A stretch of 34,421 nucleotides of DNA from Burkholderiaceae bacterium. GTDB lineage: Bacteria > Pseudomonadota > Gammaproteobacteria > Burkholderiales > Burkholderiaceae_D. Below, piece by piece: positions 3,474 through 34,421 of the stretch. The notes under the pieces are model-generated. The model was not told where the DNA came from, searched no databases, and saw only the letters and a program-made list of their open reading frames with translations. How positions within the stretch are numbered: the first letter of the stretch is position 1; each line of letters opens with the position of its first letter. The stretch lies in assembly GCA_023653025.1 (NCBI GenBank), contig JAMNXS010000029.1:1-34421 (forward strand). The letters run 5' to 3'. The translations under genes and the position numbers were made by a program.

Positions 3474-4646
3474 ATGAATGCCCTGACCACTCCCCTGATG
3501 ACCGGCCTGCTCGGCGTCACCCTGCTGACCGCCGGCTGCGGCAAAGACGAGGCGCAGGCAGCGAAGCAGCCCGCCAAGGCCGAGGCCAGCGCCCCGGTGA
3601 AAGATCCGATGGAGGTCGTGCTGACGCCCGAAATGGCCCGCCAGTTCAAGGTCGAGTCCGCGACCATGACCGACATCGCGATCACCCAGAACGTCGCCGG
3701 CCGCATCGAGGCCAACGAGCGGCTGACGATGCGCATCGGCGCCTCTGTCACCGGCCGCGTTGTCAATGTGCTGGCCGAAGTCGGCGACCGCGTGAAGGCC
3801 GGCCAGACGCTGGCCAAGCTCGCCAGCCCGGAGCTGACCAACGCCCAGCTTGCCTACCTGCGGGCGCTGTCGCAGACCAAGCTGGCCGAACGCACCGTCG
3901 AGCGCGCACAGGCGCTGGTGGCGGCCGACGTGATCGGCTTTGCCGAGCTGCAGCGGCGCGAGGTCGAGCTGTCGGTCGCGCGCGCCGAATTGCGTGCCGC
4001 ATCCGACCAGCTGCGGCTGATCGGCCTGTCGCAGGCGGCGATCGAGCGCCTGCGCGAAACCGGCGCGATCGCGCCCGAGGTGCCGATCACGGCCACTCGC
4101 AGCGGCATCGTCATCGAGCGTAAGGTCAGCCAGGGCCAGGTCGCCCAGCCGGGCGACCCGCTGTTCACGGTGGCCGACCTGTCGAACGTCTGGGTTATCG
4201 GCGCGCTGCCGGAGCAGGATGCGAACTCGGTGCAGGTCAACCAGCGGGTCGAGGTCGACGTGCCCGCGCTCAACGGCGAAAAGCTGACCGGCCGCATCGT
4301 GTTCGTCAGCGATACCGTGCAGCCGGACACGCGCACCGTGCCGATCCGAACCGAAGTGCAGAACCCCAAATACGAGCTCAAGCCGCAGATGCTGGCCTCG
4401 CTCAAGCTCAACGGCAAGTACGTCAAGCAACTGGCCGTGCCGGCGGCGGCCGTGGTGCGCGAGAACGACAAGGACTATGTCTTCGTCCGCCTCGACGACC
4501 ACCGCTTCCGCCTGACCGAGGTCACGCTCGAACCAGCCGCCGGCGAGTTGCGTCCGGTGCGCAAGGGTCTGGACGAAGGCACGCCGATCGTGGTCGACGG
4601 CAGCTTCCACCTGAACAGCCAGCGCAAGCGCGCCGAGCTGGAGTGA
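3474..4646 (+). CDS. RND periplasmic adaptor lipoprotein (CzcB-like)
   Basis: This 390-residue membrane-fusion protein links the inner-membrane pump to the outer-membrane channel. The start at 3474 gives MNALTTPLMTGLLGVTLL followed by TAGC, a signal peptidase II lipobox, so the mature protein is predicted to be a lipoprotein on Cys22. A barrel-sandwich/lipoyl half-motif (ASVTGRVVNVLAEVGDRVKA) is followed by an alpha-hairpin (residues about 125-185), the second lipoyl half (ITATRSGIVIERKVSQGQ), a beta-barrel domain and a C-terminal membrane-proximal domain ending with the HLNSQRKRAELE tail. No His-rich N-terminal metal-binding extension, as in some CzcB proteins, is present. The frame stays open far upstream across czcC, but that is coding shadow. 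The pump gene begins 4 bases after the stop. Confidence 0.92.
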   Translation: MNALTTPLMTGLLGVTLLTAGCGKDEAQAAKQPAKAEASAPVKDPMEVVLTPEMARQFKVESATMTDIAITQNVAGRIEANERLTMRIGASVTGRVVNVLAEVGDRVKAGQTLAKLASPELTNAQLAYLRALSQTKLAERTVERAQALVAADVIGFAELQRREVELSVARAELRAASDQLRLIGLSQAAIERLRETGAIAPEVPITATRSGIVIERKVSQGQVAQPGDPLFTVADLSNVWVIGALPEQDANSVQVNQRVEVDVPALNGEKLTGRIVFVSDTVQPDTRTVPIRTEVQNPKYELKPQMLASLKLNGKYVKQLAVPAAAVVRENDKDYVFVRLDDHRFRLTEVTLEPAAGELRPVRKGLDEGTPIVVDGSFHLNSQRKRAELE

Positions 4647-4650
4647 CGTC

Positions 4651-7600
4651 ATGACCGGACTAATCAAGGCGGCGCTCGAGCAGCGCCTGATCATGGTAGT
4701 GATCGCCCTGGCGCTGATCGGTTTCGGCATTCGTGCCACGACCAAGCTGTCGGTCGATGCCTTCCCGGACGTGACAAACATTCAGGTGCAGATAGCCACG
4801 GAGGCGCCGGGCCGCTCGCCGGAGGAAGTCGAGCGCTTCGTGACCGTGCCGCTGGAGATCGCGATGACCGGCCTGCCGGGGCTGACCGACATGCGCTCGA
4901 TGAATCGCAGCGGGCTGTCGATCATCACGCTGGTCTTCACCGACCAGACCGATGTCTATTTTGCGCGCCAGCTCGTCATGGAGCGGCTGATGGAAGTGCG
5001 CTCGCGCCTGCCGGACGGCATCACGCCGGTGCTGGGCCCGGTCTCGACCGGCCTCGGCGAGGTGTTCCAGTACACGCTAGAACACCCGGACGACGGCAAG
5101 CGCAAGCTGTCCGAGTCCGAGTTGATGGATCGCCGCTCGCTCCAGGACTGGGTCGTGCGGCCGATGCTGCGCTCGATCTCGGGCGTGGCCGAGATCAACT
5201 CCTTCGGCGGCTTCGAGAAGCAGTACCAGGTGCTGGTCAACCCGGATCGGCTGCGCCATTACCAGATCGGCATGGAAGAGGTGCGGTCGGCGATCGCGGC
5301 CAACAACGCCAACTCGGGCGGCGGCATCCTGCCGCAGGGCGCCGAGCAATTCCTTGTGCGCGGCGTCGGCCTGACCCGCACCGTCGAGGACATCGGCAAC
5401 ATCATCCTGAAGGAAGAGCGCGGCATTCCGGTATTCGTGCGCGACGTCGCCTCCGTGAAAATCGGCCCGGCGGTTCGCCAGGGCGCCCTAATCAAGGACG
5501 GCGTCACCGAATCGACCGGCGGCATCGTCATGATGCTCAAGGGCGGCAACGCCAAGGAAATCGTCGGCCGCATCAAGCAGCGCGTCAACGAAATCAACAG
5601 CAAGCAGATGCTGCCGGGCGGGCTGCAGATCGTGCCCTTCTACGACCGCACCGAGCTGGTCGATGCGTCTTTGTGGATGGTCGGCAAGGTGCTGATCGAG
5701 GGCGTGATCCTGGTGGTCGTGGTGCTGCTCATCTTCCTCGGCGACCTGCGCTCGTCGCTGGTGGTGATCGCCACGCTGGTCATCACACCGCTGGTCACCT
5801 TCATGATCATGAACCGGATCGGGCTGTCGGCGAACCTGATGTCGCTGGGAGGGTTGGCGATCGCGATCGGCCTGATGGTCGACGGCACCGTGGTGGTGGT
5901 CGAAAACGTCTTCCACAAGCTTGGCCATGCCAAGCCGGAAGAACGGGTCAAGGTCGTGCTCGAGGCCACGCTCGACGTGGCCAAGCCGACCATCTACGGC
6001 ATCTCGATCATCATCCTCGTGTTCCTGCCGCTGATGACGCTGACCGGCATGGAAGGCAAGATGTTCGGCCCGCTGGCGCTGACCATCGCCATCGCACTCG
6101 CGGTGTCGCTGGCGGTGTCGCTGCTGCTCTCGCCCGCCCTGTGCGCATACATCCTCAAGGGCGGCGCCGACCATGACACGAAGCCGATCGCCTTCATGAA
6201 GCGCCACTACCTGTGGCTGCTGAATCTGGCGATGTCGGCCCAGAAAAAAACCGTGGCCGCGGCCGTGCTGCTGCTGATCGGCTCGTTCGCGCTGTTCCCT
6301 CTGCTGGGCAAGAGCTTCATCCCCATCATGAAGGAAGGCTCGATCACGCCGACCATCGTGCGCATGCCCAGCATCTCGATCGACGAAGCGGCCAAGATCG
6401 ATCTCGAAGTCATGCGGCGCGTGAGCGAGATCCCGGGCGTGCGGATGGCCGTCTCCCGGCTCGGCCGCGGCGAGTCGCCGGCCGACCCGTCCGGCCCGAA
6501 CGAATCGGATCCCATCGTCTCGCTGACGCCGGATTCCGGCCGCCTGCAAACCGAGATCGAAGACGACATCCGCAAGGCCGTGGCCGACCTGCCCGGCGTG
6601 CAGATCATCATGAACCAGCCGATCGCGCAGCGCGTCGACGAAATGCTGACCGGCGTGCGCTCGCAGCTGGCGATCAAGATCTTCGGCGACGACCTGAACG
6701 AGCTCAAGCGCCTGTCCGAGCAGGTGGCGATGATCGTCAAGCAGGTGCCCGGCGCGCGCGACATCCGCGTCGACCGCCTGTCCGGCCAGCAGACGCTGAC
6801 CATCGACATCGACCGCCGCGCGATCGCACGCTACGGCATCAATGTCGCCGATATTCACGAAGTCATCGAGACTGCCATCGGCGGCAGCGAGGTCAGCCAG
6901 CTGTACGAGGGCGAGCGCCGCTTCGCGATCCTGCTGCGCTACCCGGAAGGCTTCCGCAATTCGGTCGACGTGATCCGCGAGACCCTGCTGCGCACCGCCG
7001 ACAACGCGCTGATACCGCTCGACAGCGTGGCAGAGGTCAAGGTCGTCGATAGCCCGCCGACCATCATGCGCGAGACCGGCAAGCGCCGCGTCGTGGTCGG
7101 CGCCAACGTCGCCGGGCGCGACCTCGGCGGTTTCGTGGCCGAGGTCCAGCAGCGCGTCGATGCCCAGGTCAAGCTGCCCGAGGGCTACTACTTCTCGTGG
7201 GGCGGGCAGTTCGAGAACATGCAGCGCGCGATGGGCACGCTGATGATCATCGTGCCGCTGACCATCGTCGCCATCTACTTCCTGCTGTTCATGATGTTCA
7301 ATTCGGTGCGGCTGGCGGCGCTGATTATCACGGTGCTGCCGTTTGCCTCGATCGGCGGCGTGTTCGGCCTGGCCATCACCGGCGAATACCTGTCGGTGCC
7401 GGCGTCGGTCGGCTTCATCGCGCTATGGGGCATTGCGGTGCTCAACGGCGTGGTGCTGGTGACTTACGTGCGCAAGCTGCGCGAAGACGGCGTCCCGATC
7501 GACAAGGCGCTGCGGGAAGGCTGCGCGCAGCGCTTCCGGCCGGTGATGATGACGGCCACCGTCGCGCTGCTGGGCCTGGTGCCTTTCCTGTTCGCGAACG

Positions 7601-27467: not shown

Positions 27468-28135
27468 CGTGAATTCGGGGGTTGGGATGGCGGGTTTCGC
27501 TGCGCTCTACCCGCCCTACGTATCGTTTTTGCCGGGGCCTTGGGCAGCGGGTGGGACGGCGGGTTTCGCTTTGCTCTACCCGTCCTACGTACTGGAACCT
27601 TGGTGGGGTTGGGGTGGCGGGTTTCGCTTTGCTCTACCCGCCCTACGTATCGTTTTTGTCGGGGCCTTGGGCGGCGGGTGGGACGGTGGGTTTCGCTTCG
27701 CTCTACCCGCCCTGTGGTGATCGTCAATCGCTTCAATCGAAAGGGCGGGCAGAGTGAAGCGAAACCCGCCATGCAAACGCCAACACCGGAAAGTTCCAAT
27801 TACCGTAGGGCGGGTAGAGCGCAGCGAAACCCGCCATGCAATCCCCAACACCAGAGAGTTCCAAGTACCGTAGGGCGGGTAGAGCGAAGCGAAACCCGCC
27901 GTGCAAACCCCAACACCGGAAAGTTCCAGGTACCGTAGGGCGGGTAGAGCGAAGCGAAACCCGCCGTGCAAACGCCAATACCGGAAAGTTCCAGGTACCG
28001 TAGGGCGGGTAGAGCGAAGCGAAACCCGCCGTGCAAACGCCAATACCGGAAAGTTCCAAGTACCGTAGGGCGGGTAGAGCGCAGCGAAACCCGCCGTGCG
28101 AACCCCAACACCAAAAACCTCCAAGGCCTGCGCAC
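27468..28135. repeat. REP-like repeat cluster between convergent genes
   Basis: No gene is credible here. A 32-base element with self-complementary ends (GGCGGGT ... ACCCGCC) occurs about ten times. Four copies in one orientation begin at 27489, 27558, 27616 and 27685 (spacings 69, 58 and 69). Six in the opposite orientation begin at 27739 (degenerate), 27804, 27869, 27934, 27999 and 28064, an exact 65-base period. The 33-base intervals of the second group are nearly identical (each has an ACCGGAAAGTTCCA-like core with small changes), so it is a tandem array. The element can form a hairpin and may act as a bidirectional transcript end for the antiporter and fliJ. Confidence 0.9.
27804..28128. 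repeat. Five 65-base tandem units
   Basis: Five successive units differ by only a few bases, for example GCAGCG against GAAGCG inside the palindrome and CCAACACC against CCAATACC in the interval. The last unit runs into fliJ-proximal sequence at about 28128. Confidence 0.85.
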
Positions 28136-28567
28136 TTAACGGAGGTTGAACAACCTCAGCCCCGCCTCGTCCAGCGCCCGCTGCTCGACCTTGGCCGCCG
28201 CCAGCGCGCGGTTGCGCTCTTCGCGCTCGACCATGGACTCCATCTTTACCTGCTCGCGCAACGCGAGCGTGTGCGCATGCTTTGCTTCGGCAAGGGCAAG
28301 ATGAACCTGCTGCAACTGCGTTTCCACCTTGCGGCGCAGGCCGCGCAGGTGCTCGAGGAATTTGCGGTAGGTGATCGTGTCCTGAATCGAGTGCGCGTTT
28401 TTTTGCGTCTCGTTGTAGCGGGCGATGTAGTCGTCGCGCAGGCGGTCGAGATGGGCGAGGCTGGCCTCGAGCTTGTCGACCTGTGCGCGCACCGCATTCA
28501 GCTGCGCCTGCGCATCGCGCACGGCAGACTGTGCCTTATCGGCGAGAACGGTCCAGGTATTATTCAT
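28136..28567 (-). CDS. fliJ: Flagellar export protein FliJ
   Basis: This 143-residue protein is highly helical with heptad character throughout (for example LNAVRAQVDKLEASLAHLDRLRDDYIARY would span one long coil; only its start, LNAVRAQVDKLEASLAHL, is quoted as the key region). FliJ is the coiled-coil stalk that joins the FliI hexamer to FlhA in the flagellar export apparatus. Sequence conservation in FliJ is weak, so the assignment rests on length (usually about 147), helical pattern, FRNxxxY-like YRKFLEHLRGL region and position directly after fliI. ATG at 28567 is preferred over the adjacent GTG at 28570. The gap to fliI is 16 bases. Confidence 0.85.
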   Translation of the reverse strand: MNNTWTVLADKAQSAVRDAQAQLNAVRAQVDKLEASLAHLDRLRDDYIARYNETQKNAHSIQDTITYRKFLEHLRGLRRKVETQLQQVHLALAEAKHAHTLALREQVKMESMVEREERNRALAAAKVEQRALDEAGLRLFNLR

Positions 28568-28583
28568 CACGTAGCCGCCCCGC

Positions 28584-29909
28584 TCAGGCGCCAGTCAGTT
28601 CGCGAATGCCGTCGCGGGTGCGCTGGTAATCGACGCCCTCGTGCATGTCCTGCCGCAGAAAGGCTTCGAGCTGCGGCCGCAGCGCGATTGCGAGATCGAT
28701 GTCGGCATTCGATCCGGCTTCATAGGCGCCGACCGAGATCAGGTCCTGGTTCTGCTGGTACAGCGACCACAGCCGGCGTACGCGGTTCGCGAGCTTGAGA
28801 TCGTCCGGCGGCACCAGGTTCTGCATCACGCGCGAGATCGAGCCGTTGAGGTCGATCGCAGGATAGTGCGCGGCGTCGGCCAGCTTGCGCGACAACATTA
28901 CCTGGCCGTCGAGCGACGCGCGCGCGATGTCGACGATCGGGTCCTGCGCATCGTCGCCTTCGGCCAGCACGGTGTAGATCGCGGTAATCGCGCCATAGCC
29001 GTTACGGCCGACGCCGGTGCGTTCGATCAGGTTCGGTAGCAGCGCAAACACCGACGGCGGATAGCCCTTCGCGGTCGGCGGCTCGCCGATCGCAAGGCCG
29101 ATCTCGCGCTGCGCATGCGCGACGCGCGTCAGGCTGTCCATCAGCATCAGGACATTCTTGCCCTGGTCGCGGAAGTATTCGGCGATCACGTGCGTCAGGT
29201 GCGTGGCCTTGAGCCGCATCACCGGCGACACGTTGGCGGGCGCGGCGATCACGACCGACTTGGCCCGGCCTTCGGGCCCGAGCACTTCATTGATGAAAGC
29301 CTGCACCTCGCGGCCGCGCTCGCCGATCAGGCCGATGACGACGACATCGACCTTGGTGTTGCGGGTAATCATGCCCAGCAGCGAGCTCTTGCCGACGCCG
29401 GAGCCGGCGACGAGGCCGATCCGCTGCCCGCGTCCCATCGTCAGCAGGCCGTTGATGGCCTTGACGCCGACATCGATCACCTGATTGATCGGGCCGCGCT
29501 CCATCGGGTTCAGCGGCAGGCCGAGCAGGGCGAGGCGGTCGGGGCAGTCGGGCTTCGGGCCGCCATCCAGCGGCTCGCCGAAGGCATCGATCACGCGCCC
29601 CAGCAGCGCGGGGCCGAGCGAGGCTTCCGAGGAATTGGCCAGCACGCGCACGCTGGCGCCGGGGCCGATGCCGACCGGCTCGGTGAAGGGCATCAGGAAC
29701 AGGGTCTGGTCATGGAAGCCGACCACCTCGGCCTGCACCTTGTGGTGGCCGACGGCCGATTCGACTTCGCACAGCGCACCCAGCGGCGCCATAATGCCGC
29801 GCGCCTCGAGCGTCATGCCGACCAGCCGCACCAGCGTACCGGTATGGCAGGCCTCCGGCACGCGCGCCTGCGCGACCAGGCGCTCGACGACCGCGGCGTA
29901 ATCAGGCAT
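28584..29909 (-). CDS. fliI: Flagellum-specific ATPase FliI
   Basis: This 441-residue protein is the ATPase of the flagellar type III export apparatus, related to the F1 beta subunit. The Walker A loop is GSGVGKSS (169-176), GLIGERGREV carries the catalytic Glu region (193-202), the Walker B strand ends in LMLMD (254-258), and QREIGLAIGEPPTAKGYPP (267-285) is the signature of the FliI/YscN family. The length agrees with Salmonella FliI (456). Its ATG overlaps the end of fliH by 8 bases, consistent with co-translation of a complex partner. Confidence 0.96.
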   Translation of the reverse strand: MPDYAAVVERLVAQARVPEACHTGTLVRLVGMTLEARGIMAPLGALCEVESAVGHHKVQAEVVGFHDQTLFLMPFTEPVGIGPGASVRVLANSSEASLGPALLGRVIDAFGEPLDGGPKPDCPDRLALLGLPLNPMERGPINQVIDVGVKAINGLLTMGRGQRIGLVAGSGVGKSSLLGMITRNTKVDVVVIGLIGERGREVQAFINEVLGPEGRAKSVVIAAPANVSPVMRLKATHLTHVIAEYFRDQGKNVLMLMDSLTRVAHAQREIGLAIGEPPTAKGYPPSVFALLPNLIERTGVGRNGYGAITAIYTVLAEGDDAQDPIVDIARASLDGQVMLSRKLADAAHYPAIDLNGSISRVMQNLVPPDDLKLANRVRRLWSLYQQNQDLISVGAYEAGSNADIDLAIALRPQLEAFLRQDMHEGVDYQRTRDGIRELTGA

Positions 29910-31287
29910 CGCCGTCCGCCGGTGCAGCGGTCTCGATCGTGCGCTCGGCCTTGTCGGTGAGCGTGACGTCTTCCACCTGCGTGCTGCCGCGCTGGCCGTC
30001 GGCGAGGCGCTCGGACAGCGTTCCGCCGGCGGCGCGCCAACCGGGCGCAGCCGGTTGCGACAGCGAGCGCTTGAGGCCCGAGATACGGCGCTGCATCAGG
30101 TCTTCGACCACGCTGCCGTCGAGCGAGACGCGCACGCTGCCGCGCTCGAGCAAATGGTCAGGACGCAGGATCAGGCTGTCGGCGAACGACGCGACGGTCG
30201 GGCGGTAAGCTTCGAGATCGTCGGGATGCAAATGAACGATGACGGCCTTGTCGCCGGCCGCGTTCAGCTCGCGCAGCGCATTGTCGACCAGCCGCGAGAT
30301 GGCCTGCGGCGATTGCGCGAGTTCGCCGCGCACCAGCTGCTCGGCCAGATGGACGGACAGCTGCTTCATCGGCTCGAACAGCGCATCGGCGTCATAGGCC
30401 AGTTGCTGCAGGCCGTCGATCACTGTCTGCAGTTGCGCCAGCCGCGCTTCATGTTCGCGTTGCTCGCGCCGCTGCCGGTCGGATTGGAGTTCGCTGCGAG
30501 CCTGCGCCGCACCGGCGGCCAGGCCCTCGTCATAGCCCTGCTGGTGAGCCACGGGCCGCTCGGCCTCGCGACCCTGCGCAAGGCCGGCCTGCATTCCCTG
30601 TTCATAGCCCTCGGCGCGGGCGGCTTCGATCATCTGCTGTACGGCCTCGCTGCCGGGCAGCTCGGCGGCGGCCGCTTCAGCGTCGGCGATCTCGGCGGTG
30701 TTTTCGGCATCGGCAGCATCGGCAGCATCGGCCGCCTCGGCAGCAGGGTCGGCAGTGGCGGCGACCGCCGTCTCGCCACCGATCTCCGACTGCACGCCGT
30801 GCAGCTCGGCCACCGGCGGCGAGCTGTCGGTCTGTGCCGTAATGGGCCCGTCGAGCGCCGGGTCCTGTGCTGCCATGGCATCGGCCACGGGCGCAGCCTT
30901 GGCCGCATGGTCGGAGGCCTCGTCGGCATCGGTGCCGATCGCGCGGGCAGACGGGTCAGCCGCAGCATCGGCCCTGAAGCCGTCGGCCGTGGAGCCTTCA
31001 GCCCTGAAGCCGTCGCCCGGTTGCGCGGCCTCGGCCACAAAACCCTCGGCATGCGGCGTGTCTGTCGCTTCCTCGTCGGCCCGCAGCCGCTGGTCGACCT
31101 CGAACGAGTCCGGCGCCGGGCCGCTCATCAGCGCATCGAGCCCGAACCCGCGGGCCGGACGCTCGTCGCGCGCTTCGATGAACTGCGGTTGTTCTTTTTC
31201 GAGCAGGTTCTGGATGGCGAACGGATTCGATACCGGATCGAACATCCGGTTCGGCATCCAGCGCTTGGCTGCCCGGGGGTCAGACAA
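29902..31287 (-). CDS. fliH: Flagellar assembly protein FliH, long form
   Basis: FliH is the peripheral stator that binds FliI and FliN. Residues about 213-415 are the family domain: a GxxxG-type helix (EGYEQGMQAGLAQGREA, 227-243, and YDEGLAAGAAQA, 252-263), then the dimer helix and the C-terminal domain with VIVHLHPDDLEAY. The protein is 461 residues against about 230 in Salmonella. The extra length is mostly a low-complexity Ala/Asp/Glu stretch (about 62-212, with a GFRAEG repeat) plus a 45-residue tail. I set the start at TTG 31287, because GCGGAG (31294-31299) lies 6 bases before it; it overlaps the fliG stop by 8 bases. The first in-frame ATG is 10 codons later (31257) and remains possible. 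Confidence 0.88.
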   Translation of the reverse strand: MSDPRAAKRWMPNRMFDPVSNPFAIQNLLEKEQPQFIEARDERPARGFGLDALMSGPAPDSFEVDQRLRADEEATDTPHAEGFVAEAAQPGDGFRAEGSTADGFRADAAADPSARAIGTDADEASDHAAKAAPVADAMAAQDPALDGPITAQTDSSPPVAELHGVQSEIGGETAVAATADPAAEAADAADAADAENTAEIADAEAAAAELPGSEAVQQMIEAARAEGYEQGMQAGLAQGREAERPVAHQQGYDEGLAAGAAQARSELQSDRQRREQREHEARLAQLQTVIDGLQQLAYDADALFEPMKQLSVHLAEQLVRGELAQSPQAISRLVDNALRELNAAGDKAVIVHLHPDDLEAYRPTVASFADSLILRPDHLLERGSVRVSLDGSVVEDLMQRRISGLKRSLSQPAAPGWRAAGGTLSERLADGQRGSTQVEDVTLTDKAERTIETAAPADGDA

Positions 31288-32335
31288 AGTCGGCTCCGCC
31301 CGAGGCCAGGATCAGCTCGCCCTTCTCGGACAGCTTGCGCGCCTGGCGCATGATCTTCTTCTGCGCGTCTTCCACTTCGGTCATGCGCAGCGGACCCTTG
31401 GCTTCCATGTCGTCGAGGAACATGCCGCGCGCGCGGCTGGACATGTTGTCGAGGAACTTGGTCTTGACCTCTTCGGTCGCGCCCTTCAGCGCAATCATCA
31501 GCATGTCCGGCTCGACGGCGCGCATCAGCGCCTGGATGCCTCGGTTGTCCACCGCCGCCAGGTTCTCGAAGCTGAACATGTTGTCCTGGATGCGCAGCGC
31601 GAGCTCTTCGTCGATCTGGCCCACGCCCTGCAGGATCGAGGATTCGAGCTCGACCTTGGTGAAGTTCATGATCTTCGCCGCCGCCTTCACGCCGCCGAAG
31701 CTCGACGACGAGGCCGACGCGTTGCTCGAGAACTGCTTCTTCATGATGGTCTCGAGCTCTTCCATCGCCGACGGCTGCACCGTGTCGAGGCTGGCCACCC
31801 GCTGCACGACTTCGGCGCGCGATTCTTCCGGCAGGAAGGCCAGCACGTCGGCGGCGACCTCGGACTCGAGCACCGACAGAATGATGGCCGTCACCTGCGG
31901 ATGCTCGCCGCGAATCATTTCGGCGATGGCGCGCGCGTCCATCCACTGCAATATCTCCAGGCCGCGGCTGGCGCGGTTGGGCATGATGCGCGATAGCACC
32001 GACGCCGCCTTATCCGGGCCGAGCGCGCGCTTCAATACCGTTTCGACATATTCGGTCGTGCCGAGCGACAGGCTGGTCTGCTTCTTCAGCATGTCGACGA
32101 ATTCGTCGAGCACCCAGTTGACGGCTTCCTGCGACATGTCGGCCACCGACACCATGGCCGCGCCCAGCTCCTGCACCTCTTTCGGATCAAGGTAGCTGAT
32201 GATGTTCGACGCCAGGTCCTCGCCGAGCAGGAGCATCAGCACGGCGGCGCGCTGCACATTGGTGATCTCGGACAGCTCGCGTTTGAGCTCGTCCGACATC
32301 GGCGGTGGGGTCTGGATTGCGGTGTTCTCTGCCAT
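31280..32335 (-). CDS. fliG: Flagellar motor switch protein FliG
   Basis: This 351-residue rotor protein joins the FliF ring to the C ring and carries the torque-generating helix. The N-terminal domain (about 20-110) begins TNVQRAAVLMLLLGEDL and binds the FliF tail; the middle domain has the EHPQ motif (GEHPQVTAI); the C-terminal domain retains the charged torque residues in LKGATEEVKTKFLDNMSSRA and MFLDDMEAKGPLRM. The length is slightly above the usual 331-340. GAGG with 7 bases spacing precedes the ATG at 32335. A small gene resembling the FliF tail lies 39 bases upstream. Confidence 0.96.
   Translation of the reverse strand: MAENTAIQTPPPMSDELKRELSEITNVQRAAVLMLLLGEDLASNIISYLDPKEVQELGAAMVSVADMSQEAVNWVLDEFVDMLKKQTSLSLGTTEYVETVLKRALGPDKAASVLSRIMPNRASRGLEILQWMDARAIAEMIRGEHPQVTAIILSVLESEVAADVLAFLPEESRAEVVQRVASLDTVQPSAMEELETIMKKQFSSNASASSSSFGGVKAAAKIMNFTKVELESSILQGVGQIDEELALRIQDNMFSFENLAAVDNRGIQALMRAVEPDMLMIALKGATEEVKTKFLDNMSSRARGMFLDDMEAKGPLRMTEVEDAQKKIMRQARKLSEKGELILASGGADFV
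31294..31299 (-). promoter_or_regulatory. Ribosome-binding site supporting the TTG start of fliH
   Basis: GCGGAG on the minus strand, inside the 3' end of fliG, is 6 bases from TTG 31287-31285. No comparable site precedes the first ATG. Confidence 0.5.
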
Positions 32336-32374: not shown

Positions 32375-32605
32375 TTACTTCTTTTTCGGGGCGCCGGCGC
32401 CCTTGAGCATGTTTTTCACCATCAGGACCACGCGGCCCTTCTCTTTCTCGGTCAGGTACTTGACCAGCACCAGCTTGTCGTCATAGCTCTTGGCGCTCGA
32501 CAGCATCTCGCTGGGCAGCGCGGCCTTCTTCTTCGGCTTGAACTTCTTTTTCATCGCCTCGAGGTCATCGGGCGTCATGTCGGGCTTTTGCTCTTCCGGC
32601 ATCAT
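32375..32605 (-). CDS. Small FliF-tail-like protein between fliF and fliG
   Basis: This 76-residue product repeats the FliG-binding C-terminus of the adjacent FliF. Aligned by eye, its residues 13-69 match the last 56 residues of FliF with about 26 identities and one gap: DDL and KPKK in the linker, then ML..A.SYDDK, then GRV.L..KNM. It lacks the FliF ring-building domains and both membrane segments, and ends in a basic tail (GAGAPKKK). It starts at ATG 32605 (or the next codon), 31 bases after the fliF stop, and ends 39 bases before fliG; the ribosome-binding site is weak. The sequence similarity is direct; the inference is that it binds the FliG N-terminal domain. I know of no named family for it. 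Its coding character and its place inside the operon argue against a random open frame. Confidence 0.8.
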   Translation of the reverse strand: MMPEEQKPDMTPDDLEAMKKKFKPKKKAALPSEMLSSAKSYDDKLVLVKYLTEKEKGRVVLMVKNMLKGAGAPKKK

Positions 32606-32636
32606 TGTTCCAATTCTTGTAATTTCTTCGTCGCGC

Positions 32637-34421
32637 TCAGTTGCGGACCATGTTCTTCAGCACCAGCGCCACCCGGCCCGACTCCTGCGAGACCAGCATG
32701 CGGATCAGGGCGACCTTGTCATCATAGCTGTTCGCGGTGTCCAGCATGTCGGCCGTGAAGGTCGGCTTCTTCGGCTTCATGGCCTGCATGCGGGCACGCA
32801 GGTCGTCCAGGCTTTCGCCTTCCTCGAGCTCGACTTCGCCCTCGGCCAGTTCTTCGTCGTCGCCTTCCTCGCCCTCGCCGCCTTCTGCGGCAGGTCCGGC
32901 CAGCTGCAGCGCTTCTTCGGCGGCCTTCGCCTCTTCGGCCGCCTTGGCCTCGGCGGCGGCTTTCGCCTCTTCCTCGGCCTTGGCCGCCAGTTCCGCCCTC
33001 GCGGCCTCGGCCGCCTTGTCCTCGAGCGCCTTCAGTTCTTCCGGGGTCGGGCCCGGCGGCGGCAGGATCTGCTGCGTGATCGTCGGGCCCTTGACCATCG
33101 GACGCACGACGGCCAGCAGGAAGACGATGATCACGAAGGCAGCGATTGCGATCTTGATGACGTTCTGGATGTCCGGATCCGCATACCAGGGCTTCGGCGG
33201 CTCGGGAGCGAGCGTCTCGAAGCGGGCCGGTGCCACGGTCACCACATCGCCGCGCTCTTCGTTGTAGCCGACGGCGCTGCGCACGAGGTTGAGCATGCGG
33301 TCGAGTTCCTGCTGCGTGTACGGCTGCGTGGTCGGGGCGCCCGGGGGTAGCGGCTTGCCGTCGGCCGGCGGCGGCGCCGGGCGCTCGGCGACGACCACGG
33401 CGACGGTGACGCGCGAGATCTGGCCCGGCGAATTTTTCACATGCCGCACCTGCCTATCCATCTCGAAATTGCGGGTCGAGCGTGTGGTCGTGATCTCGTT
33501 GGTCGCCGGCTTCTGCTCGTCGGTGTTGGTGTTTTTAGTCAGGTCGGCATCCGGCGGCGGCGAGTTCGTCATCGCGCCCGGAATGCCCTCCGGATCGAGC
33601 TTGAACTTGCGCTCGGTGGTCAGTGCCTCGGAACGCGGCTTGACGCCCTTGTCCTGATTATCGAAGTCTTCGGTCGTGGTCTCGACCTGCGTGTAGTCCA
33701 TCGTCAGGTTGACCTGCGCCTGCACGGCGGCCTCGCCGACCACCGGCGCAAGCAAATCGACCACGCGGTTCTTGTAGGTTTCCTCGGTGCGCTGCTTGTG
33801 CGACATCTGCGCGACCGACAGGCCCATCGCCGCATCGACCGGGTTGTCGGCGGTCAGCAGGTTGCCCTGGTCATCGACCACGGACACGTTCTCCGGCGTG
33901 AGGTAGGGCACGCTGGACGACACCAGATGCACAATGGCCTTCACCTGCGGCGTCGACACGCCGCGGCCGGTATGCGGCGTCACCACCACCGAAGCCTTCG
34001 GCGTGGCGCGCTCGCGCACGAACACCGACTGCTTCGGCAGCGCCAGATGGACGCGCGCGGCCTTGATGGTCGAAATCTGCATGATGCTGCGCGAGAGTTC
34101 CTGCTCGATCGCGGTGTTGTACTGCACCTGCTCCATGAACTGGCTGGTCGTCATCGACGACTTTTCCTTCAGCGACTCCATGCCGATCGGCTGCGCTTCC
34201 TTCGGTATGCCCTGCCCGGCCAGGAAAATCCGTGCCTCGTGATAACGCGCCTCCGGCACCGTGATCTGGCCGCTGCTGGTATCGACCCGCGGCTTGAAGT
34301 CGCCGGCCTTCAGCGCCTCGATGGCGGCCTGCTTGTCGGTCTCGGTCATGCCCGGCATGATCGGGCGGTACGGCGTGCTCTGCGTGAACTGGAGTGCGGT
34401 CGCCACGATCACCAGCAGCAG
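32637..34421 (-). CDS. fliF: Flagellar MS-ring protein FliF (5' end outside window)
   Basis: The reading frame is open to the window edge at 34421, so the N-terminus (cytoplasmic start and part of TM1) is missing; the visible part has 594 residues. It begins in TM1 (LLLVIVATALQF), followed by ring-building motifs: FLAGQGIPKEAQPIGMESL, EQELSRSIMQISTIKAARVH and VRERATPKASVVV. TM2 is VIKIAIAAFVIIVFLLAVV. After TM2 comes an unusually long Ala/Glu-rich segment (repeats of AKAAEEAKAAEEA and an acidic GEEGDDEELAEGEVELEEGE stretch) and then the FliG-binding tail ML..ANSYDDK...GRVALVLKNM. With the missing start it would exceed 620 residues, against 560 in Salmonella. It heads the visible operon. Confidence 0.95.
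   Translation of the reverse strand: MLLVIVATALQFTQSTPYRPIMPGMTETDKQAAIEALKAGDFKPRVDTSSGQITVPEARYHEARIFLAGQGIPKEAQPIGMESLKEKSSMTTSQFMEQVQYNTAIEQELSRSIMQISTIKAARVHLALPKQSVFVRERATPKASVVVTPHTGRGVSTPQVKAIVHLVSSSVPYLTPENVSVVDDQGNLLTADNPVDAAMGLSVAQMSHKQRTEETYKNRVVDLLAPVVGEAAVQAQVNLTMDYTQVETTTEDFDNQDKGVKPRSEALTTERKFKLDPEGIPGAMTNSPPPDADLTKNTNTDEQKPATNEITTTRSTRNFEMDRQVRHVKNSPGQISRVTVAVVVAERPAPPPADGKPLPPGAPTTQPYTQQELDRMLNLVRSAVGYNEERGDVVTVAPARFETLAPEPPKPWYADPDIQNVIKIAIAAFVIIVFLLAVVRPMVKGPTITQQILPPPGPTPEELKALEDKAAEAARAELAAKAEEEAKAAAEAKAAEEAKAAEEALQLAGPAAEGGEGEEGDDEELAEGEVELEEGESLDDLRARMQAMKPKKPTFTADMLDTANSYDDKVALIRMLVSQESGRVALVLKNMVRN

What the first reader, a model, noticed from the sequence alone, without database searches (positions are those of the whole stretch)
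32375..32605. A free-standing copy of the FliF FliG-binding tail encoded between fliF and fliG
The 76-residue product matches the last 56 residues of the neighbouring FliF at about 26 positions by eye, including the linker (DDL, KPKK) and the whole FliG-binding segment (SYDDK, GRV, KNM). Known biology: the FliF C-terminus binds the FliG N-terminal domain and fixes FliG to the MS ring. A soluble copy could hold FliG before ring assembly, cap surplus FliG subunits, or change FliF:FliG stoichiometry. That the linker is shared too points to duplication of a fliF 3' segment rather than convergence. I know of no described system of this kind.
Basis: partly seen in the sequence, partly recalled or inferred. 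Interest (0 to 1): 0.8.

Follow-up and report, generated by a model that had tools for sequence, protein, structure and literature searches.

The report
Free-standing FliF tail shared with phages
A freshwater bacterium and its relatives carry a small separate copy of the tail by which the flagellar base ring grips the rotor protein FliG, and T4-like phages, at least one of which seems tied to the same bacteria, carry the same small protein, which suggests, untested, that it controls or blocks assembly of the flagellar motor.

Summary
In detail: X (76 aa, 32375-32605, minus strand) aligns to the last 56 FliF residues at 26 of 57 columns (E 7e-15). X lies at the fliF-fliG junction in 17 of 21 genomes of its genus; in the other four no junction of this flagellar type is readable. 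It is under purifying selection; its core is constant, its N-terminus varies.

Two results go further. (1) In two other families of the order, tail copies sit on non-FliF membrane proteins. (2) Two overlapping scans of viral contigs found 123 and 147 stretches encoding relatives; all 80 read were stand-alone proteins of X's kind. Of 20 such records searched, 9 hold the T4 capsid protein. Phage and host X share about eight residues that FliF mostly lacks. One phage carries a transport gene closest to this genus.

Most likely X is a soluble FliG-docking decoy or holder, born from a fliF 3' duplication and captured by phages. FliG binding is inferred: AlphaFold could not show docking, and the direction of transfer is not proven (AU p 0.17).

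The parts
32375..32605 (-). gene X: free-standing FliF-tail protein, 76 aa, stop TAA at 32375-32377
   Evidence: open frame; at the junction in 17 of 21 genus genomes; omega 0 to 0.03 in the core of eight pairs of close relatives
32399..32569 (-). conserved FliG-docking-like core of X (residues 13-69), with lysine-rich linker KFKPKKK and the segment AKSYDDKLVLVKYLTEKEKGRVVLMVKNML
   Evidence: aligned to FliF residues 539-594; shared with phage proteins
32637..34421 (-). fliF, 5' end cut by the window edge
   Evidence: PF01514 7.7e-58, PF08345 3.7e-36, TIGR00206 1.4e-75
32640..32807 (-). FliF C-terminal tail (residues 539-594 of the open frame), the counterpart of X
   Evidence: BLASTP; profile match of genus FliF tails to six other FliF tails, probability 96.6
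31280..32335 (-). fliG, 351 aa; presumed partner of X and of the FliF tail
   Evidence: TIGR00207 3.7e-94; FliG_N, FliG_M, FliG_C in Pfam
31964..32266 (-). FliG N-terminal domain (PF14842), the presumed docking site
   Evidence: Pfam and genome scan
32606..32636 (-). 31-base gap from fliF stop to X start, with a weak GGA element before ATG
   Evidence: gaps 18-48 bases in the 14 genus genomes measured
28136..31287 (-). fliH, fliI and fliJ, the rest of the cluster downstream of fliG
   Evidence: PF02108 9.5e-12, T3SS_ATPase_C 1.2e-25 with ATP-synt_ab 6.5e-79, PF02050 4.6e-12

Best explanation
X is a stand-alone copy of the FliF tail that docks on the N-terminal domain of FliG. It arose by partial duplication of fliF in the lineage of this genus, lost everything that tethers the tail to the membrane ring, and is made with FliF and FliG from one gene cluster. 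It most likely works as a soluble competitor of the FliF tail: by sitting in the FliG groove it holds FliG in a folded but unassembled state, or caps surplus FliG, and so sets when and how much FliG joins the MS ring. T4-like phages of these bacteria took up the gene; a phage copy made in excess would keep FliG off the MS ring or pull it away, and so block new motors or stop rotation in infected cells. Shown here: homology, genus-wide conservation at this locus, purifying selection in host and phage, lack of a membrane segment, the phage family. Inferred: FliG as the target, the competitive mechanism, its purpose, the phages' hosts beyond one contig, and the host-to-phage direction.
For: Homology to the FliF tail. 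X and the genus FliF tails each match a set of six other FliF tails (two conventional, four of family f78) by profile (X: probability 94.5, E 8.1e-8; FliF tail: 96.6, E 5e-10). A tblastn of one phage protein against 72,556 plasmids gives a single match at E up to 1, the C-terminus of an annotated fliF (41.5% over query residues 20-60, E 4e-3). In Salmonella FliFC wraps FliGD1, with strong density for all its C-terminal residues (PMC11087270, passages), so this tail is a FliG-docking element by established knowledge. X is at the junction in 17 of 21 genus genomes. Core omega is 0 to 0.03 in eight of the nine pairs with dS 0.20-0.62 and 0.20 in the ninth, G015-G017, which are of different subgroups. 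The second, conventional fliF-fliG pair in G000, and that of G013, overlap by 4 bases without an X, so X goes with one flagellar type. Phage copies are under purifying selection (median omega 0.107, maximum 0.35, 42 pairs) and share diagnostic residues with X. A phage binding-protein gene (PBP_like_2; pstS by recall) is closest to this genus: in all 18 genus genomes with a match identity is 72-78%, in the best other genome 71%. That free FliG can need help is on record: mVenus-FliG was stable in E. coli only with FlhF (PMC11236974, passages).
Against: No binding was tested. The first AlphaFold model failed (mean pLDDT 49.9, pTM 0.28). The second (66.7, pTM 0.50) folds most of FliG_N and the X helices, but the output holds no interface measure; Foldseek gives no match at E 1e-3 or better, and its first twelve are FliG or C-ring entries, best 5wuj_B at E 1.3e-3 and rmsd 8.4. 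X has changed residues that all 18 FliF tails compared keep (R9 to K, V12 to T or S, counted from the S of SYDDK), which could mean a changed partner. In the other families tail copies are membrane-anchored, which suits an anchor better than a soluble holder. The AU test does not reject a clade of host X without the phage rows (p 0.172). The host link rests on one gene of one phage contig; a second neighbour gene was not informative.
Confidence: 0.45

Rival explanations
1. X is a structural subunit of the finished motor: it fills FliG N-domains that have no FliF tail, for example where ring symmetries differ, and the membrane-anchored versions in other families are extra anchors of the same kind.
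For: In Salmonella a 33-mer MS ring and a 34-mer C ring were seen together (PMC11087270, passages). Anchored tail proteins: one hydrophobic segment next to fliF in f123, one to four at other loci in f17. Co-location with fliF and fliG.
Against: A filler needed by one or a few subunits hardly explains uptake by many phages. X has variable low-complexity N-termini, up to 238 aa in all.
Confidence: 0.17
2. The gene was born or honed in phages as a motility blocker and was then taken into the flagellar locus of the genus, where it now serves as a brake.
For: X scores higher with its best phage row than with the best of six genus FliF tails in 16 of 16 genus rows. In the second scan 147 viral stretches encode relatives. 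The AU test does not exclude it.
Against: The free tree puts the phage clade inside host X, with G014 and G009 next to FliF. X and phage agree with this genus's FliF against FliF of other families at two positions, E at 15 and L at 21. X sits in the same place in all junctions read.
Confidence: 0.13
3. X and the phage protein keep the two-helix form but bind something other than the FliG groove: FliF itself, the export apparatus, or nucleic acid by the lysine-rich linker.
For: Lysine-rich linker and ends; changed and charged residues in the turn; no docking shown.
Against: Key positions of the tail are kept or nearly kept in X and phage rows (L-5, Y1, D3, K4, L11, R18, K24); same locus as fliG.
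Confidence: 0.17
4. X is a decaying relic of a duplication or an over-called open frame.
For: One relative, G783 of f123, does have a broken remnant at the same place; G014 lacks a clear ATG start.
Against: Omega of at most 0.18 in the five whole-gene pairs and 0 to 0.03 in the core of eight pairs of close relatives; median omega 0.107 in phages.
Confidence: 0.03

Closest known systems
FliF C-terminal FliG-binding tail (solved FliF-FliG complexes 5wuj, 5tdy and Salmonella C rings)
   Same: Homologous tail, linker included; same gene neighbourhood
   Different: X has no ring-building domains and no membrane segment; it is a separate soluble chain
FlhF FliG-interaction domain (PMC11236974, passages read)
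   Same: A non-FliF protein shown to bind FliG, and reported to stabilise it, before it engages FliF
   Different: FlhF is an SRP-type GTPase; its domain has another fold and binds mainly FliG-MC; X should bind FliG-N in place of FliF
YcgR and EpsE motor brakes (recalled, not read)
   Same: Separate proteins that act on the rotor
   Different: No sequence relation known to me; X has no Pfam match at all
Phage-encoded host-mimic and takeover proteins; microProteins made from one domain of a larger protein (recalled)
   Same: A single interaction domain cut out of a host protein and used alone
   Different: None aimed at FliG turned up in the listings; PHROGs has no family that matches it well

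Membership tests
FliF (MS-ring protein) | YscJ_FliF and YscJ_FliF_C domains | tested here: not met
   X has no Pfam or NCBIfam match at E up to 1
FliF (MS-ring protein) | Transmembrane helices | tested here: not met
   no hydrophobic segment in 16 of 16 genus X (simple Kyte-Doolittle scan)
FliF (MS-ring protein) | C-terminal FliG-binding tail | tested here: met
   by sequence only: 26 of 57 identities, profile match; binding itself not tested
FliG-binding proteins (functional class) | Physical binding to FliG N-domain | tested here: inconclusive
   AlphaFold runs give no interface measure and low to middling confidence
FlhF | SRP-type GTPase domain with N-terminal FID | tested here: not met
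   no Pfam or NCBIfam match in X
Phage accessory (takeover-type) genes, for the viral relatives | Encoded in genuine phage genomes outside the core set | tested here: met
   DNA polymerase, helicase, primase, NrdA or GTP cyclohydrolase within 5 kb in four contigs, 5 of 9 neighbours scanned; gp23 family in 9 of 20 records; variable neighbours
Phage accessory (takeover-type) genes, for the viral relatives | Effect on the infected host | not testable with these tools
   needs phage and host in culture
Known phage (PHROGs) and defence (PADLOC) families | Profile match | tested here: not met
   X: none; 3 of 8 phage proteins only at E 0.12-0.23 to families of unknown function; PADLOC none in 3 of 3 at E up to 0.1

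The most novel reading that the evidence does not exclude
T4-like phages of freshwater Burkholderiales carry a captured FliF-tail mimic that docks on host FliG and shuts down or reprograms the flagellar motor during infection; the host copy in the flagellar locus is the parent regulator. This would be a phage effector aimed at the C ring by mimicry of its own anchor.
Probability: 0.35. Interest if true: 0.9.

Novelty: new variant of a known kind. Interest (0 to 1): 0.78.

Why it matters
If X binds FliG, it separates in nature two things that are hard to separate in the laboratory: docking of FliG on the FliF tail and insertion in the ring. It offers a ready soluble inhibitor of the MS-C ring interface. 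The phage copies would show that lytic phages act on the rotor itself, a target that did not come up in my searches, and would give a handle on why phages interfere with motility. The recurrence of tail copies on other membrane proteins in two more families, and on one protein in a third, suggests that extra FliG docking sites are a repeated need of this flagellar type.

Tried and rejected
Weak matches of X in other genera of its family and order (E 0.02-0.9): I printed frames at nine of the 13 loci fetched for them (L019-L022, L024-L026, L028, L030); none shows a FliF tail there. By recall several look like thrS or ABC ATPases. I take them as chance and did not count them.

X as an extension of fliF by frameshift: rejected, because FliF keeps its own full tail and stop, and X has its own start.

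AlphaFold of X read through into FliG with 4 rows: failed. A shorter X-FliG_N construct with 52 rows folded better, but docking could not be read. I take neither as evidence for or against binding.

Profile search of PDB sequences with the tail alignment: only chance matches (best E 0.031). Phage records: no match for two phage proteins (E limits 0.01 and 10) or for X (0.1) in 50,697 records. A viral scan for relatives of the window's FliG found none. The Bax1-I neighbour of phage X (PF01027): its best matches are genus genomes but at 28-31% identity, so it is no host evidence.

The tree test did not reject a clade of host X without phage, so the host-to-phage direction stays a preference.

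Full report
OBSERVATION. The window ends in a flagellar cluster on the minus strand: fliF (cut at the window edge), X, fliG, fliH, fliI, fliJ. X is 32375-32605, 76 aa. X has no Pfam or NCBIfam match at E up to 1. BLASTP of X with the neighbouring FliF: 26 of 57 identical, E 7e-15. Shuffling X 2000 times gave a maximum score of 61 against the observed 131. In the own genome only two places match this tail, FliF and X.

CONSERVATION IN THE GENUS. The genus has 21 genomes in the collection, the own included. X stands at the fliF-fliG junction in 17 of 21: complete or nearly so in 16, and as an N-terminal part at a contig end in G010. In G017 fliF lies off the contig; in G014 the frame is open but has no clear ATG, a TTG start giving 53 aa. 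The four others show no junction of this type: G004 and G018 have no FliF match, in G011 the FliF contig ends before the junction, and G013 has only a conventional fliF. Public records with the contigs of three of these species are titled Oxalobacteraceae or Burkholderiales. The core of about 55 residues is constant, the N-terminus is not: with the first plausible start X is 70-109 aa in 11 of the 14 genomes measured, and 224-238 aa in G002, G006 and G012, with PAK-type repeats. No membrane segment was found in 16 of 16. Of 120 pairs, 26 have a core dS under 1.2. Nine of these have dS 0.20-0.62: eight, between close relatives, have omega 0 to 0.03, and one across subgroups 0.20; the highest of the 26 is 0.29. 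Five whole-gene pairs give 0.02-0.18.

TWO FLAGELLAR TYPES. G000 has a second fliF and a second fliG on contig C108. There, and in G013, fliF and fliG overlap by 4 bases, there is no X, and the FliF tail ends in VVKNWVGAE, much as in conventional FliF. X belongs to the other type.

TAIL COPIES ELSEWHERE. Of 399 genomes drawn from the order, 12 have the tail of this type (own included), in families coded f1, f12, f17, f18, f42 and f123. Of 398 drawn from the phylum, 6 matched the X profile: the own, one more of the order, and four of one other family, f78, all four in FliF-sized frames. In family f123, 5 of 74 genomes have the tail; in 3 a second copy follows fliF directly, on a 127-178 aa protein with one N-terminal hydrophobic segment (G685, G740, G761); in G783 a broken remnant lies there; G778 has none. 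In family f17, 15 of 26 genomes have the tail; in 14 it ends a non-FliF protein of 255-438 aa with one to four hydrophobic segments by a simple scan, and in G786 there is a weak match in a 103-aa frame. In nine of the 14 a FliF tail was found too, on another contig; in the other five no FliF tail was found, perhaps because the genomes are incomplete. In f18 one 283-aa protein with one hydrophobic segment ends in a divergent tail. G323 (f42) and G538 (f12) have only FliF. Pfam gives no match over cut-off for the eight of these proteins that I scanned. The eight copies compared keep mostly FliF-type residues and in the trees group with FliF tails rather than with X, so they look like separate duplications.

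PHAGE RELATIVES. A scan of the viral contigs (2.9 million) with the combined tail alignment matched 204 stretches, of which 123 encode a relative; a second scan with an X and phage alignment matched 204, of which 147 do; the two overlap. Each returned the best 80. I read the 80 of the first scan: 80 of 80 are stand-alone frames of 63-110 aa, 56 distinct proteins; the others were not read. They have the plan of X: a short, mostly acidic start, a lysine-rich linker, the core, a lysine-rich end. The contigs look like phages: of nine neighbour proteins scanned against PHROGs, five in four contigs match DNA polymerase (phrog_262), DnaB-like helicase, primase, ribonucleotide reductase large subunit and GTP cyclohydrolase, four match nothing. 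The polymerase of one is up to 49% identical to those of Synechococcus phages such as S-SM2 gp43, T4-like by recall. Of 20 records of 35-365 kb searched whole, 9 have the T4 major capsid family PF07068, in two groups of E-value (1e-141 to 1e-151, and about 1e-100), in contigs of 118-365 kb; the other 11 may be fragments. Neighbours vary; in 16 of 80 loci the same kind of membrane protein, of the Bax1-I family in the one scanned, lies 6-8 bases upstream of X. The core is under purifying selection, median omega 0.107, maximum 0.35, in the 42 pairs with dS 0.1-1. GC of the viral loci is 0.33-0.47, against 0.45-0.59 in ten genus loci. No match was found in 50,697 phage records for two phage proteins or X; PHROGs and PADLOC have no good match.

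RELATION OF X, PHAGE PROTEIN AND FLIF. One search compares 16 X, 52 phage, 6 genus FliF, 12 other FliF and 8 other tail rows. Counted from the S of SYDDK, X and phage rows mostly share K-1, L5, V8, K9, T12, E13, K14 and K16 (16 is K in only 6 of 16 X rows), where FliF tails mostly have N, V, I, R, V, S/A/Q, E or Q, and S. At 15 (E) and 21 (L in 4 of 6, else M) the FliF of this genus sides with X and phage, while the 12 other FliF rows have D at 15 and mostly N, T or S at 21. In the tree of 94 rows and 57 columns, the rows of G014 and G009 lie between FliF and the rest of X, and the 52 phage rows form one clade (100/99) placed inside X, next to G019, G016, G007 and G003 (99/99). Without phages, X is one clade (100/100). 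Holding all host X together costs 15.7 log units but is not rejected (p-AU 0.172); few columns limit both trees. I therefore prefer: fliF 3' duplication in the genus lineage, then capture by phages; the reverse order remains possible.

HOST OF THE PHAGES. One X-bearing contig (L182) carries a periplasmic binding protein (PBP_like_2; pstS by recall). In 96 related genomes its matches in all 18 genus genomes that have one are 72-78% identical and rank first; the best genome outside has 71%. This ties that phage, or its donor, to the genus. A second neighbour gene of another contig gave only 28-31% in the genus.

DOES X DOCK ON FLIG? By established knowledge the homologous FliF tail wraps FliGD1 (PMC11087270, passages). 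A search of 72,556 plasmids with a phage protein finds one match at E up to 1, the end of an annotated FliF of Octadecabacter, in a cluster fliE-fliF-fliG-fliH-fliI without an annotated X. X and FliG of the window are in one frame, separated by one TAA, so both could be folded as one chain. The long construct failed. The short one gave pLDDT block means of 79-90 for chain residues 101-170 of FliG_N, 55-66 for the last 39, and 73-77 for residues 41-70 with the X helices 41-54 and 56-68, pTM 0.50. Foldseek found no match at E 1e-3 or better; the first twelve are FliG or C-ring entries, 5wuj_B first (E 1.3e-3), which only recognises FliG. Docking is thus inferred, not shown.

MECHANISM. A tethered tail anchors; an untethered one competes. 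Since X lacks ring and membrane parts and is made from the same cluster, the simplest use is to occupy the FliG groove off the ring, as a holder or brake. FliG alone was unstable in E. coli and stabilised by FlhF in one study (PMC11236974, passages), and Vibrio FliF needs FliG or FlhF to form rings efficiently in E. coli (PMC11481574, passages), so supply of FliG matters. For a phage, the same protein in excess would be a motility blocker. The structural-filler rival rests on the 33/34 mismatch (PMC11087270, passages).

KNOWN OR NEW. In the listings (titles and starts of abstracts), over open-access full texts only, I saw no free-standing FliF tail and no phage effector on FliG. Beyond the three papers named, of which I read passages, no paper was opened. 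By working principle it resembles single-domain decoys and phage mimics (recalled), hence new variant of a known kind; the family itself is not in the libraries searched.

Noticed in passing
window 27478-28112: Two tandem arrays lie just downstream of fliJ: 65-base unit, 5.7 copies, 93% matches (27742-28112), and a 127-base unit, 1.9 copies (27478-27713). They translate in places to RAGRAKRNPP-like peptides.
   Followed up: partly
G000:C108 (locus L096) 3880-6701: The own genome has a second, conventional fliF-fliG pair without X, so two flagellar systems.
   Followed up: partly
L087 6097-6876, L089 3436-4203, L091 4753-5949 and 11 further f17 loci: Membrane proteins of family f17, away from fliF, end in a FliF-type tail; no Pfam match over cut-off in those scanned. 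They may be extra FliG anchors.
   Followed up: partly
L086 about 5530-5979, L136 4613-5149, L137 3646-4029: In family f123 a protein with one hydrophobic segment and a FliF-type tail follows fliF directly, like a mini-FliF of TM2 plus tail.
   Followed up: partly
L138, after 1836: G783 has a broken remnant of a tail copy between fliF and fliG.
   Followed up: no
L182 7432-8454: A phage contig with the T4 capsid family carries a periplasmic binding protein gene (pstS by recall) closest to this genus (up to 78%), which points to its host.
   Followed up: yes
L159 4303-4980 and 15 other viral loci: A divergent membrane protein, Bax1-I family in the one scanned, lies 6-8 bases upstream of phage X in 16 of 80 loci.
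   Followed up: partly
L044, L046, L048: X of G002, G012 and G006 has a long N-terminal extension with PAKTAAV-type repeats.
   Followed up: no
L072-L075: FliF of family f78, kin to the window's genome at phylum level only, has a tail between the conventional and the window type; the X profile gave one match per genome, in the FliF-sized frame.
   Followed up: no
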